Translations under genes and position numbers: made by a program
Shown: positions 13,504 through 31,860 of the stretch, one piece after another
Position numbering within the stretch: position 1 is the stretch's first letter
Layout: the number at the start of each line of letters is the position of its first letter
The notes under the pieces: generated by a model
Seen by the model: only the letters and a program-made list of their open reading frames with translations
What the model was told of the DNA's origin: nothing
The model's database searches: none
Source of the DNA: a virus
Virus record (IMG/VR): IMGVR_UViG_3300028392_000065
Span: 1 to 64,000 of that record
DNA length: 64,000 bases
Strand: one strand, 5' to 3'

Positions 13504-13615
13504 TACAAGTACATGGGGAGGGGGAAAGTATGCCCTCTCTCAGTACCTAAATTTCCCTAAAAGAACCTCAAGCACTACTCTTAGAAACCCTAGGAATAGA
13601 GCTTGGGGTTCTTTT
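13504..13615 (+). ncRNA. structured leader with attenuator-like terminator
   Basis: The leader has two folded parts. The first is closed by GTAC/GTAC with GGGGAGGG pairing CCCTCTC inside. The second is a 13-pair stem AAGAACCTCAAGC (13561-13573) with GCTTGGGGTTCTT (13601-13613), one U-G pair, followed by TTGCATTT, an intrinsic-terminator shape. The helicase Shine-Dalgarno begins about ten bases later. This fits transcription attenuation or release of a small RNA. Confidence 0.55.
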
Positions 13616-28569: not shown

Positions 28570-28580
28570 CCTATAAAGGC

Positions 28581-28650
28581 GGCGTAGGGCCAGGAAACAC
28601 GGCAAAACTGGCCCTACGCCACTTGGGAAGAGACCAGCCTTCCCCAATAT
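28581..28650 (+). other. two stable hairpins after DUF932 gene
   Basis: GGCGTAGGGCCAG (28581-28593) pairs perfectly over 13 bases with 28608-28620 around a 14-base loop. TTGGGAAG (28623-28630) then pairs with CTTCCCCAA with one bulge. No T run follows, so this is either a factor-assisted terminator or an mRNA 3'-end protector. Confidence 0.6.
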
Positions 28651-28692
28651 AACCTTATGTTTAAATTACTTTGTTTTCTATCCCAATTGGTG

Positions 28693-28722
28693 TTGCATAA
28701 CTGTCACAAAGTGTGCTATAAT
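28693..28722 (+). promoter_or_regulatory. rightward promoter for ribozyme-separated gene cluster
   Basis: TTGCAT and TATAAT are 18 bases apart, with AAGTGTG before the -10 and AATAGA at its end. It closely resembles the promoter at 31689 and would drive the six small genes with hammerhead spacers. Confidence 0.75.
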
Positions 28723-28791
28723 AGAAGTATTCGAGCGGTAATCGTGCTGCCCGAAAATACCCCATCAAACGCCCTGTTTGGTGGGTTTTTT
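28723..28791 (+). ncRNA. short leader ending in an intrinsic terminator
   Basis: The leader begins with an imperfect hairpin (TTCG...CGAA, GGTA...TGCC). It ends in CCCATCAAAC (28761-28770) paired with GTTTGGTGGG (28776-28785), one U-G pair, and six T. The Shine-Dalgarno AAGGAG of the first cluster gene starts seven bases later. Readthrough is required, so this is an attenuator or a source of a small RNA of about 65 bases. Confidence 0.65.
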
Positions 28792-28812: not shown

Positions 28813-29112
28813 ATGACCACAACATCCACAAGTGAACACCACGATTGCGCACATAGTCAGTGCCAGCACGTTGTTGCGTACAGCGACGAGCGTTACTGCT
28901 ACATGCATGAACCACCAGTTTTTGATGATCATAACTGTGTGGTTCTTAATTGTGCTCACTGGAAGACAGGCAAGACATTCCGTCCGCTTGAACAACCAGT
29001 TGCTGTTGCTGCAGGTCCAAGTTATTCAGAGCAAGTATTGGCCGATGCTAAAGCAGAAGCAGCCAAGCTTGCAGATGACTGGGACTGGCCACTGCCAAAC
29101 GACGATTTCTAA
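28813..29112 (+). CDS. Cys/His-rich small protein, first of ribozyme cluster
   Basis: The 99-residue protein has a Cys/His-rich N-terminus (HHDCAHSQCQHVVAYSDERYCYMHEPPVF, then HNCVVLNCAHW), which could bind one or two zinc ions, and an acidic helical tail (ADDWDWPLPNDDF). AAGGAG precedes the ATG. Its stop codon abuts the first hammerhead ribozyme. Function unknown. Confidence 0.8.
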   Translation: MTTTSTSEHHDCAHSQCQHVVAYSDERYCYMHEPPVFDDHNCVVLNCAHWKTGKTFRPLEQPVAVAAGPSYSEQVLADAKAEAAKLADDWDWPLPNDDF

Positions 29113-29173
29113 GTCGAAACCGCCTAGTGCGGTCCATCAGGATTAACCACCTGATGCTGATGAGACAGGTTAA
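29113..29173 (+). ncRNA. type II hammerhead ribozyme A with pseudoknot
   Basis: GAAA is at 29116-29119. Stem III pairs ACCGC (29119-29123) with GCGGU (29129-29133). The cleavage dinucleotide UC ends at 29134. Stem I CATCAGG (29135-29141) pairs perfectly with 29150-29156. CUGAUGA is at 29157-29163. Stem II is GTC (29113-29115) with GAC (29164-29166). Loop TTAACC (29143-29148) pairs with GGTTAA (29168-29173), touching the next Shine-Dalgarno. Every conserved core base is present. Confidence 0.93.
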
Positions 29174-29184
29174 AGGAGACAGAA

Positions 29185-29361
29185 ATGAACAACAACACAA
29201 GTAGAGCTCAAGAACTTATTGGCGTTGGCAAAGCTACTTTGCTCCTACCAATAGTTCTAATCGGCCTTGGCTTTATCGCCCTCAAGGATGTTGTACGCCG
29301 CACAAACCGTGTTGCAGAGATCCTAGACGGTGCCATCGAAGAGTCGAAACTTCCTCAATAG
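29185..29361 (+). CDS. 58-aa single-pass membrane protein ending inside a ribozyme
   Basis: The frame starts after AAAGGAG and encodes one transmembrane helix (LLLPIVLIGLGFIAL) flanked by a short N-terminus and a basic then acidic tail (VVRRTNRVAEILDGAIEE). The last codons (Ser-Lys-Leu-Pro-Gln-stop) are also the core and stem III of hammerhead B; the stop is in the stem III loop. Function unknown. Confidence 0.8.
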   Translation: MNNNTSRAQELIGVGKATLLLPIVLIGLGFIALKDVVRRTNRVAEILDGAIEESKLPQ

Positions 29362-29405
29362 GGGAAGTCTGCTGGGGTAACCGCCCAGCACTGATGAGAC
29401 AGGTT
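29343..29405 (+). ncRNA. type II hammerhead ribozyme B overlapping coding end
   Basis: GAAA is at 29346-29349. Stem III pairs ACTTCC (29349-29354) with GGAAGT (29363-29368), and the cleavage base is C29369. Stem I TGCTGGG (29370-29376) pairs perfectly with 29384-29390. CUGAUGA is at 29391-29397. Stem II is GTC (29343-29345) with GAC (29398-29400). Loop AACC (29379-29382) pairs with GGTT (29402-29405). The 5' part is translated as the end of the preceding gene. Confidence 0.9.
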
Positions 29406-29435
29406 CCCAATAGCAATCCTGCTGTTGGGCTTTTT
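29406..29435 (+). terminator. intrinsic terminator directly after ribozyme B
   Basis: CCCAATAGCA (29406-29415) pairs with TGCTGTTGGG (29420-29429) around ATCC, one U-G pair, then C and five T. It begins at the base after the pseudoknot strand of ribozyme B, and the next Shine-Dalgarno lies about six bases after the T run. Confidence 0.85.
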
Positions 29436-29451
29436 CTTTTAAGGAGAAAAC

Positions 29452-29799
29452 ATGAACGACGATAACAAGGTACGTGGCCTCGGAGAAATCTTCCTACAGG
29501 CATTGTTCGAAGCACCTGGTGTTCTAGTTGCTTCAGCCCAGCGTATCCAACAGCGTGAGCTTGAAGAAGCAGTTCTGGCACATGTGCGCAACCAGCCACA
29601 CAACCAGACCATCTGCAGCTCATGCGCACCAACGGTCCCAGCCACCGCAGTCAAGGACTGCACTGTCCACGACTTCGGCAAGTGTGTTGTTGACTGCCGT
29701 TACCGCACAGGCTTCCCAGGCAAGTGCACCAAAGAGAAGGACTGGCCTTACTCGCACGGTGACGGTAACTGCAAGCCAGACTGCTACGGTCGCCCGTAA
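29452..29799 (+). CDS. Cys-rich small protein in ribozyme cluster
   Basis: The 115-residue protein has a helical N-terminus (GEIFLQALFEAPGVLVASAQRIQQRELEEAVL) and a Cys-rich C-terminus with at least seven cysteines (ICSSCAP, DCTVHDFGKCVVDCRY, GKCTKEKDW, NCKPDCYG), suggesting metal binding. AAGGAG precedes the ATG. Function unknown. Confidence 0.78.
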   Translation: MNDDNKVRGLGEIFLQALFEAPGVLVASAQRIQQRELEEAVLAHVRNQPHNQTICSSCAPTVPATAVKDCTVHDFGKCVVDCRYRTGFPGKCTKEKDWPYSHGDGNCKPDCYGRP

Positions 29800-29802
29800 C
29801 AA

Positions 29803-29862
29803 GTCGAAACGCCGTGAGGCGTCTGCCGGAACTGACCTACCGGTACTGAGGATGACAGGTCA
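29803..29862 (+). ncRNA. type II hammerhead ribozyme C with pseudoknot
   Basis: GAAA is at 29806-29809. Stem III pairs ACGCC (29809-29813) with GGCGT (29818-29822) around GTGA; the cleavage base is C29823. Stem I TGCCGG (29824-29829) pairs with CCGGTA (29840-29845), one G-U. CUGAGGA is at 29846-29852. One extra U (29853) precedes stem II GAC (29854-29856), which pairs with GTC (29803-29805). Loop TGACCT (29833-29838) pairs with AGGTCA (29857-29862). The extra U may lower activity. Confidence 0.85.
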
Positions 29863-29878
29863 AAAAAAGGAGACGGAA

Positions 29879-30160
29879 ATGTTTTGGACAATTGCAACCT
29901 ACATTTGGCGCATCGCAGAAGTGCTAGTTTTACTCGTACTAGCCCCAGTGTTGTACCGCATGACCAAAGAACTGTTCGATGACACAAAGTGCCTCAGCTG
30001 TTCACGTGTAAGCATCGAAGTATGGGCATGTCATGCTGATCGCAAATATTGCATCAACTGCTGTGGCTGCCCAGAGCATGCAGATACAACGCATCCATAT
30101 CGTCACTGCAGCACAGCGCCAGCAAACACGTGGTGCGGTAAATGTGCTGAAGTTGATTAG
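29879..30160 (+). CDS. membrane-anchored Cys-rich protein
   Basis: The 93-residue protein has an N-terminal transmembrane helix (IAEVLVLLVLAPVLYRM) and a Cys/His-rich domain behind it (KCLSCSR, WACHADRKYCINCCGCPEH, HCSTAP, WCGKCAEVD), likely a metal-bound cytoplasmic or periplasmic head. AGGAG lies eight bases upstream. The last base of its stop codon is the first base of ribozyme D stem II. Confidence 0.8.
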   Translation: MFWTIATYIWRIAEVLVLLVLAPVLYRMTKELFDDTKCLSCSRVSIEVWACHADRKYCINCCGCPEHADTTHPYRHCSTAPANTWCGKCAEVD

Positions 30161-30219
30161 TCGAAACGCCGCGAGGCGTCTGCTGGGATTGACCTACCAG
30201 CACTGAGGAGATAGGTCAA
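30160..30219 (+). ncRNA. type II hammerhead ribozyme D with pseudoknot
   Basis: GAAA is at 30163-30166. Stem III pairs ACGCC (30166-30170) with GGCGT (30175-30179) around the GNRA loop GCGA; the cleavage base is C30180. Stem I TGCTGG (30181-30186) pairs perfectly with 30197-30202. CUGAGGA is at 30203-30209. Stem II GTC (30160-30162, first base from the stop codon) pairs with GAT. Loop TTGACCT (30189-30195) pairs with AGGTCAA (30213-30219), the longest pseudoknot of the set. Confidence 0.93.
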
Positions 30220-30230
30220 AGGAGAAAGAA

Positions 30231-30413
30231 ATGGATGCTAAGACAGCATTGGAACATGCAATCGAAGACGCCGAATACATGGCAAAGCGTTTTGGGCGAG
30301 GTTCACAAGAACTTGCAGTCCAATACAAAGAAACAGCAATTGCTCTGCGTAAGGTTCACTCTGCACTGTTCGCAACTAAGCGCGTTTACAAGAAGCGCGA
30401 AGCTACTAACTAA
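30231..30413 (+). CDS. 60-aa helical protein
   Basis: AAAGGAG precedes the ATG. The product is helical and ends basic (TKRVYKKREATN), with EHAIEDAEYMAKRFG and VQYKETAIALRKVHSAL segments. No family recognised. It lies between ribozymes D and E. Confidence 0.75.
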   Translation: MDAKTALEHAIEDAEYMAKRFGRGSQELAVQYKETAIALRKVHSALFATKRVYKKREATN

Positions 30414-30415
30414 AA

Positions 30416-30473
30416 ATCGAAACGCCGTGAGGCGTCTGCCGGCATAGCCAACTGGCACTGATGAGACAGGCTA
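30416..30473 (+). ncRNA. type II hammerhead ribozyme E with pseudoknot
   Basis: GAAA is at 30419-30422. Stem III pairs ACGCC (30422-30426) with GGCGT (30431-30435) around GTGA; the cleavage base is C30436. Stem I TGCCGG (30437-30442) pairs with CTGGCA (30452-30457), one G-U. CUGAUGA is at 30458-30464. Stem II has only two pairs (TC with GA). Loop TAGCC (30445-30449) pairs with GGCTA (30469-30473). Confidence 0.88.
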
Positions 30474-30484
30474 AAGGAGAAGAA

Positions 30485-30751
30485 ATGACTACTCAAGTAA
30501 CGTACAAGTCGATCAAAGATTTGTACAAAGTAATTGCTGAAATTGACGAAAACCAAATGGTTACAGTCACACTCATCCCTTGGGCTTACGAGCCAATCAA
30601 ATACGTCAACACATTTGATATGACAACCGCTCCATACATGGAAGTCGTAAACTCTCTCAGCGGATTAGTTGACATCTCTATCGCAGAATACAACAGCAAT
30701 CCCCACGACGATAAATATCAAGACTCAGATCATAAAGTAGAAGGTGAGTAA
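30485..30751 (+). CDS. 88-aa acidic protein, last of ribozyme cluster
   Basis: The ATG at 30485 has AAAGGAG eight bases upstream; an earlier frame start at 30461 lies in ribozyme E and is rejected. The product mixes beta and alpha (NQMVTVTLIPWAYEPIKYVN) with an acidic tail (NSNPHDDKYQDSDHKVEGE). Function unknown. Confidence 0.75.
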   Translation: MTTQVTYKSIKDLYKVIAEIDENQMVTVTLIPWAYEPIKYVNTFDMTTAPYMEVVNSLSGLVDISIAEYNSNPHDDKYQDSDHKVEGE

Positions 30752-31688: not shown

Positions 31689-31718
31689 TTGCGTACCGTT
31701 GTGTAAGTGTGGTACAAT
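31689..31718 (+). promoter_or_regulatory. rightward promoter, twin of 28693
   Basis: TTGCGT and TACAAT are 18 bases apart, with AAGTGTGG before the -10 and AATAGA at its end, matching the promoter at 28693 in spacing and motif. Confidence 0.72.
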
Positions 31719-31724
31719 AGATAC

Positions 31725-31860
31725 ATCGGGTTGGGACAACTCTATCCGATACTAAATACACCGCCTAGGAGGATAACCTAAGCTACACAATGTAAGTAGC
31801 CGGACAAACCTTAAGGCAAAAAAACTACAAGCTCTGACACAAATTGTGTCGGGGCTTTTT
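31725..31860 (+). ncRNA. structured leader with three-way junction and terminator
   Basis: A first hairpin pairs ATCGG (31725-31729) with CCGAT (31746-31750), containing GTTG/CAAC. Next, CCG (31761-31763) and CGG (31801-31803) close a junction with TAGG/CCTA (31766-31769, 31777-31780) and GCTAC/GTAGC (31782-31786, 31796-31800). Finally GCTCTGACAC (31831-31840) pairs with GTGTCGGGGC (31846-31855) before five T. The next Shine-Dalgarno starts seven bases later. It looks like a riboswitch-style attenuator or a small RNA gene; no known class is recognised. Confidence 0.6.

What the first reader, a model, noticed from the sequence alone, without database searches (positions are those of the whole stretch)
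29113..30473. Tandem array of five type II hammerhead ribozymes separating six small genes
Seen: five consecutive intergenic spacers carry GAAA, a stem III ending in UC, a stem I of 6-7 pairs, and CUGANGA (three CUGAUGA, two CUGAGGA), in the type II order with stem II open. Predicted cleavage follows C29134, C29369, C29823, C30180 and C30436. Established: these are the universal hammerhead core positions. Inference: one RNA from the promoter at 28693 is self-cut into single-gene pieces. Each internal piece would start with 5'-OH and a hairpin and end with a hairpin and cyclic phosphate, protecting it from RNases. Five copies in 1.4 kb makes this an RNA-processing operon.
Basis: partly seen in the sequence, partly recalled or inferred. 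Interest (0 to 1): 0.97.

Follow-up and report, generated by a model that had tools for sequence, protein, structure and literature searches.

The report
Phage operon cut by hammerhead ribozymes
In this phage, five self-cutting RNA motifs (hammerhead ribozymes) sit between six small neighbouring genes; the arrangement has been known in phages since 2011, but comparison with related phages points to real cutting of the mRNA at gene borders and names lab-grown phages in which its unknown purpose can be tested.

Summary
Confirmed. Rfam RF02276 finds all five (46.8-29.0 bits; two pass the 37-bit cut-off). My stricter descriptor finds exactly these five in 64 kb, against one weaker hit in 18 Mb of random sequence. 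Stems I and III covary; each element has a loop I-3' tail pseudoknot. Hammerhead clusters in prophages, and the idea that they cut phage RNA into single-gene mRNAs, date from Perreault 2011: a new member of a known kind.

Added here: (1) A sister phage has orthologs of three of the genes behind a similar leader, in another order, without ribozymes. (2) Six Streptomyces phages (R4 group) carry 9-12 each, mostly at conserved junctions; all 61 cores are intact and no single-core mutants exist, so catalysis is selected. (3) Related Streptomyces phages without hammerheads carry an unrelated tRNA-like element at the same junctions (family-level p = 0.0003), never both.

Best reading: interchangeable RNA-processing punctuation at phage gene borders. 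That cleavage protects the mRNA is unproven (glmS 5'-OH ends are destabilising). Two intrinsic terminators argue against one simple transcript.

The parts
28693..28722 (+). Promoter-like site TTGCAT-18-TATAAT with extended -10 (TGCTATAAT)
   Evidence: Sequence; similar site at the same place in L126 and L131. Below the threshold of the consensus scan.
28731..28785 (+). Leader with a hairpin (28731-28754) and an intrinsic terminator (28761-28785) just before the SD of gene 1
   Evidence: Fold z = -4.67; terminator scan; similar leader in relatives
28813..29112 (+). Gene 1, 99 aa, unknown function
   Evidence: ORF; no family
29113..29173 (+). Hammerhead 1; cleavage after C29134; pseudoknot 3' strand GGTTAA 29168-29173
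   Evidence: Rfam 37.2 bits; descriptor
29185..29361 (+). Gene 2, 58 aa, unknown function; its stop codon lies inside loop III of hammerhead 2
29343..29405 (+). Hammerhead 2; cleavage after C29369; pseudoknot AACC/GGTT
   Evidence: Rfam 46.8 bits; descriptor
29406..29429 (+). Intrinsic terminator directly after hammerhead 2
29452..29799 (+). Gene 3, 115 aa, Cys-rich, unknown function; ortholog in L127 (39%)
29803..29862 (+). Hammerhead 3; cleavage after C29823; extra U before stem II; pseudoknot TGACCT/AGGTCA
   Evidence: Rfam 30.8 bits; descriptor
29879..30160 (+). Gene 4, 93 aa, Cys-rich, unknown function; ortholog in L127 (58%)
30160..30219 (+). Hammerhead 4; cleavage after C30180; pseudoknot TTGACCTA/TAGGTCAA
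   Evidence: Rfam 29.0 bits; descriptor
30231..30413 (+). Gene 5, 60 aa, unknown function
30416..30473 (+). Hammerhead 5; cleavage after C30436; pseudoknot TAGCC/GGCTA
   Evidence: Rfam 35.4 bits; descriptor
30485..30751 (+). Gene 6, 88 aa, unknown function; ortholog in L127 (72%)

Best explanation
The five elements are self-cleaving type II hammerhead ribozymes that act as RNA punctuation in a phage operon of small genes. Each folds in the polycistronic RNA between the stop codon of one gene and the SD of the next and cuts after C17. The 5' product ends with stem III and a 2',3'-cyclic phosphate. The 3' product, the next gene's mRNA, starts with a 5'-OH and the stem I/pseudoknot structure a few nt before its SD. 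The operon is thereby split into single-gene mRNAs with defined, structured ends, uncoupling their decay and translation. Shown here: presence, pairing, covariation, position, selection on the catalytic core in relatives, and another repeated RNA element in the same slots of related operons. Inferred: that these five RNAs cleave, that they cut in infected cells, and the effect on expression, whose sign is open.
For: All five match Rfam and a strict descriptor with negligible chance expectation. Pairs and pseudoknots change in step. Each element fits between stop codon and SD; in 161 IMG/VR elements the medians are 1 nt from the stop and 25 nt to the start codon, an SD plus gene follows in 81% against 18% at random places, and no locus has elements on both strands. 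In Streptomyces R4-group phages 61 elements all have intact catalytic cores and none has a single core change, though the scan recovers 549 of 549 artificial mutants; IMG/VR: 164 intact, 9 changed. Related phages without hammerheads carry a tRNA-like element at the same junctions. Clustered phage-type hammerheads cleave in vitro and in E. coli (PMC3088659).
Against: No cleavage data for these RNAs. Three of five score below Rfam's cut-off. Two intrinsic terminators argue against a simple single transcript. Sister phages run orthologs of three of the genes without ribozymes, so the benefit is not general. Element 1 has a competing fold in which stem I pairs with its core.
Confidence: 0.72

Rival explanations
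1. Cleavage lowers expression: as with glmS, the 5'-OH end marks the downstream mRNA for 5'-3' decay, and the array turns down these genes or limits them in time.
For: glmS precedent with RNase J1 in B. subtilis (PMC3328962). The anatomy does not tell stabilising from destabilising.
Against: The 3' product begins with a hairpin and pseudoknot directly at its 5' end. In related phages the slots hold a tRNA-like element; if RNase P cuts it, the 5' end would be a phosphate, so a 5'-OH would not be the common point.
Confidence: 0.13
2. Passenger repeats: the elements spread by recombination at gene borders as cassette boundaries and their cleavage has little effect.
For: Elements 3-5 are 79-87% identical. 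Gene order is shuffled relative to L127 (genes 6-4-3 against 3-4-6), and the sister phages lack the elements.
Against: Compensatory stem and pseudoknot changes and strict conservation of unpaired catalytic nucleotides in relatives show selection on the working ribozyme. An unrelated element occupies the same junctions in related phages.
Confidence: 0.08
3. Structural insulators: the hairpins protect 3' ends or block translational coupling without needing cleavage.
For: Stable stems I and III at gene ends.
Against: Strict conservation of unpaired catalytic nucleotides in relatives is not explained by structure alone.
Confidence: 0.04
4. Chance or degenerate hammerhead-like sequence.
For: Three elements score below Rfam's curated cut-off.
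Against: Five on one strand in five consecutive junctions against 1 weaker hit in 17.9 Mb of random sequence; covariation.
Confidence: 0.01

Closest known systems
Clustered hammerhead ribozymes of prophages (Perreault et al. 2011, PMC3088659)
   Same: Several hammerheads, many of type II with the loop I-tail pseudoknot, flanking single phage genes; processing into single-gene mRNAs was already proposed there.
   Different: Five here in 1.4 kb, with a sister operon that has none. The tandem cases tested there come from Clostridium scindens, Azorhizobium and Agrobacterium (a triple).
glmS ribozyme
   Same: Self-cleaving RNA before a bacterial gene; leaves a 5'-OH on the downstream mRNA.
   Different: Metabolite-controlled, unrelated fold; its cleavage destabilises the mRNA (PMC3328962).
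RNase III sites of the phage T7 early operon (own knowledge)
   Same: Phage operon cut at gene junctions into smaller stable mRNAs with hairpin ends.
   Different: Cut by a host protein enzyme, leaving 5'-phosphate and 3'-OH; no ribozyme.
tRNA punctuation of mitochondrial transcripts (own knowledge)
   Same: tRNA-shaped elements between genes are cut out to free mRNAs, as proposed here for the tRNA-like elements of related Streptomyces phages.
   Different: Full tRNAs in mitochondria; the phage element has no anticodon arm and its cleavage is untested.

Membership tests
Hammerhead ribozyme, type II (Rfam RF02276) | Core C3-UGANGA-9, G12-A13-A14, A15.1-U16.1 and H17 at the cleavage site | tested here: met
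   All five
Hammerhead ribozyme, type II (Rfam RF02276) | Stems I and III closed by loops, stem II open, in the type II order | tested here: met
   Stem I 6-7 bp, stem III 5-8 bp, stem II 2-3 bp
Hammerhead ribozyme, type II (Rfam RF02276) | Covariance score at or above Rfam's gathering score | tested here: inconclusive
   46.8 and 37.2 pass; 35.4, 30.8, 29.0 do not, though E is 4e-7 to 2e-5 for this record
Hammerhead ribozyme, type II (Rfam RF02276) | Pseudoknot between loop I and the tail after stem II (common, not universal) | tested here: met
   4-8 bp in all five, differing in step between copies. In 161 IMG/VR elements own loop and tail pair better than mismatched ones: 5.3 against 4.35 bp
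Hammerhead ribozyme, type II (Rfam RF02276) | Self-cleavage | not testable with these tools
   Needs in vitro transcription
Phage hammerhead clusters (Perreault 2011) | Several hammerheads on one strand flanking individual genes or short gene blocks of a phage | tested here: met
   Five consecutive junctions; phage terminase, portal and tail genes in the window
RNase P substrate (the tRNA-like element of related phages, not of the window) | Acceptor-like stem stacked on a T-arm | tested here: met
   Pairing 100% in 38 distinct copies, 9 of 13 pairs with changes on both sides; the two stems were demanded by the search, pairs 7-13 and 14-29 were not
RNase P substrate (the tRNA-like element of related phages, not of the window) | Cleavage by RNase P | not testable with these tools
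   No biochemical or RNA-end data available

The most novel reading that the evidence does not exclude
Phages use interchangeable RNA-cleavage elements as punctuation at gene borders: one lineage uses self-cleaving hammerheads, and related phages put a minimal tRNA-like element, probably a substrate of host RNase P, at the same junctions. The shared, selected function would be to give each gene's mRNA a defined, structured 5' end.
Probability: 0.55. Interest if true: 0.85.

Novelty: new member of a known kind. Interest (0 to 1): 0.66.

Why it matters
Reviews still call the role of bacterial and phage hammerheads an open question (PMC6155905; PMC10085705). This locus and its relatives make it testable in three ways: a sister phage with orthologous genes but no ribozymes; cultured Streptomyces phages (R4, Hank144, Pablito, Alvy) with 9-11 ribozymes each; and related phages in which another probable processing element fills the same slots, which suggests that cleavage itself is what is selected.

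Tried and rejected
Chance: rejected. Relatives in the phage collection by DNA of the operon: none. Family searches of the six genes gave no function. Two elements in phage Wentworth (L261) are weak (25.7 and 23.9 bits, pseudoknot 2-3 bp) and left out. A weak hit in relative record G004 (25.6 bits) is not found by the descriptor. The genome contigs pattern scan gave mostly chance matches: 14 of 118 loci survive the descriptor, against 100 of 120 viral loci, so type II hammerheads of this pattern behave as a phage feature. An Oceanotoga phage ribozyme beside a promoter (L260:61) first looked like a 5' cap, but the likely start site falls inside the element, so I do not use it. MFE folding cannot represent the pseudoknot; without it the hammerhead fold is within 0.5-2.7 kcal/mol of the minimum. 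phiC31 showed neither element type on the strand reported. Aminoglycoside inhibition of Streptomyces phages (PMC9239200) cites hammerhead binding only in passing and was not pursued.

Full report
WHAT IS THERE. The window is most of a 66,844-base IMG/VR virus record of a tailed phage: terminase, Mu-type portal, minor tail protein, DnaB-like helicase, primase domains, DnaE-like polymerase. The best polymerase matches among cultured phages are actinophages at about 33% identity; the host is unknown. At 28813-30751 six small genes of unknown function follow a DUF932 gene. At their five junctions lie five type II hammerheads, all on the + strand. Rfam scores are 46.8, 37.2, 35.4, 30.8 and 29.0 bits, and a strict descriptor finds exactly these five in the window, against one weaker hit in 17.9 Mb of random sequence. 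Stems covary. Elements 3-5 are 79-87% identical and look like recent copies; 1 and 2 are 61-69% identical to the others.

FIT TO THE GENES. From stop codon to ribozyme the distances are 0, inside loop III, 3, -1 and 2 nt; from ribozyme (stem II) to start codon 18, 51, 22, 18 and 17 nt (read). The element thus fills the space between stop codon and SD, and the 3' strand of the pseudoknot abuts the SD. Junction 2 is longer because an intrinsic terminator follows the ribozyme (29406-29429); another terminator sits in the leader (28761-28785). The same fit is general: in 161 distinct elements from 97 IMG/VR loci the medians are 1 nt (IQR -1 to 4) and 25 nt (22-29), an SD plus gene follows in 81% (random places 18%), 30 loci have two or more elements, 12 three or more, and none has elements on both strands. 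These loci were chosen by a sequence pattern, so this is not an unbiased census, and the gene calls are heuristic.

A SISTER OPERON WITHOUT RIBOZYMES. Contigs L126-L128 carry the DUF932 gene (60% identity) and a similar promoter-hairpin-terminator leader. L126/L127 have orthologs of genes 6, 4 and 3 (72, 58, 39%) in that, reversed, order, separated by 0 to about 18 nt, with no hammerhead. The records hold none elsewhere either, though records may be incomplete. The ribozymes are therefore lineage-specific and not needed for the genes as such.

CULTURED PHAGES WITH MORE. IMG/VR locus L083 is Streptomyces phage Hank144. Hank144, R4 and Pablito carry nine type II hammerheads each, SqueakyClean and Alvy 11, Salutena 12, all on one strand in the operon that includes ThyX, dNMP kinase and acetyltransferase genes, mostly at orthologous junctions. 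Rfam agrees (R4: nine of nine over the cut-off). I found no report of this in the open-access library, which is not a full literature search. All 61 have intact catalytic cores. A scan that tolerates one core change, and recovers 549 of 549 artificial single mutants, finds no changed element in these phages; in IMG/VR it finds 164 intact and 9 changed. Unpaired catalytic nucleotides are kept, which argues for cleavage and not merely for structure.

A SWAP AT THE SAME JUNCTIONS. Related phages of the same subfamily (Sujidade, Zemlya, Caliburn, BroPlease, Amela, phiScoe55) have no hammerhead but 5-10 copies of a 43-nt element such as GGGTGACCGGCAGGCACCGAGGTTCGAGCCCTCGGCACCCACT: a 5-bp acceptor-like stem, a GGCA loop and a 6-bp T-arm with a TTCGA loop. 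All 13 pairs hold in 38 distinct copies, 9 of them with changes on both sides; the descriptor demanded the two stems, but pairs 7-13 and 14-29, not demanded, also covary without exception. ARAGORN finds no tRNA in four of these six loci, and three in the other two; I did not check those three against the elements. No genome has both kinds of element. Across 21 ortholog families spanning both groups, the gene is preceded by both kinds (each in its own group) in 5 families, by the hammerhead only in 1, by the tRNA-like element only in 0, by neither in 15 (Fisher p = 0.0003). That the element is an RNase P substrate is inference from its shape. Intergenic space itself may be conserved at these junctions, which weakens the test somewhat. 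The simplest reading is that both are RNA-processing devices.

MECHANISM. Best reading: self-cleavage at each junction, giving single-gene mRNAs with a structured 5' end. The chemistry of the ends is established; activity of clustered hammerheads in vivo was shown for the Agrobacterium triple in E. coli (PMC3088659). The effect on stability is open: glmS shows destabilisation. Because each stop codon touches or enters the ribozyme, a terminating ribosome should cover it and delay folding (inference). The two terminators mean that readthrough or antitermination is needed for all six genes to be made from one promoter.

VERDICT. Observation confirmed; the processing interpretation is supported, protection is not shown; the kind has been known since 2011. 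The value lies in making the function testable.

Noticed in passing
L268, L269, L270, L272, L273, L274 (Streptomyces phages BroPlease, Sujidade, Caliburn, Zemlya, phiScoe55, Amela): Arrays of 5-10 copies of a 43-nt tRNA-like element (acceptor-like stem, GGCA loop, T-arm, no anticodon arm) at gene junctions, some just behind a repeated promoter-like sequence. I found no report of it in the open-access library.
   Followed up: partly
L263 (phage R4) 3763-3846, 6126-6218, 9074-9175, 11204-11494: Annotated small CDSs (gp60.1, gp67.1, gp75.1, gp81) contain a hammerhead and its cleavage site; at least the short ones are probably not genes.
   Followed up: partly
window 28570-28655: Two hairpins after the DUF932 gene; the first, with a loop like GAAACACGGCAAAAC, recurs at the same place in L126 and L131, the second (GAGACCAG loop) in L131. 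Possible unnamed structured RNA; no Rfam match.
   Followed up: no
window 31690-31860: A second promoter-like site with a long leader (GGAGGATAACCTAAG ... GGACAAACCTTAAG, then terminator) recurs in L126 and in part in L131; candidate regulatory leader RNA without Rfam match.
   Followed up: no
window 29854; L263; L260: An extra U between A9 and stem II recurs in element 3, in several R4-group elements and in an Oceanotoga phage element, so it is a recurrent variant and not a defect.
   Followed up: partly
window 29135-29163: In hammerhead 1 the 5' strand of stem I (CAUCAG) can also pair with the core CUGAUG; a competing fold or switch is possible.
   Followed up: no
L260:1-150 (Oceanotoga phage UFV02): A type II hammerhead overlaps a promoter-like sequence (GTGACA-17-TAGAAT), so it may be whole only in transcripts from further upstream.
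   Followed up: no
window 13559-13615: Near-perfect 57-base inverted repeat just before the helicase gene, probably a terminator of the genes on either side (one search lists it as a weak microRNA-precursor match).
   Followed up: no
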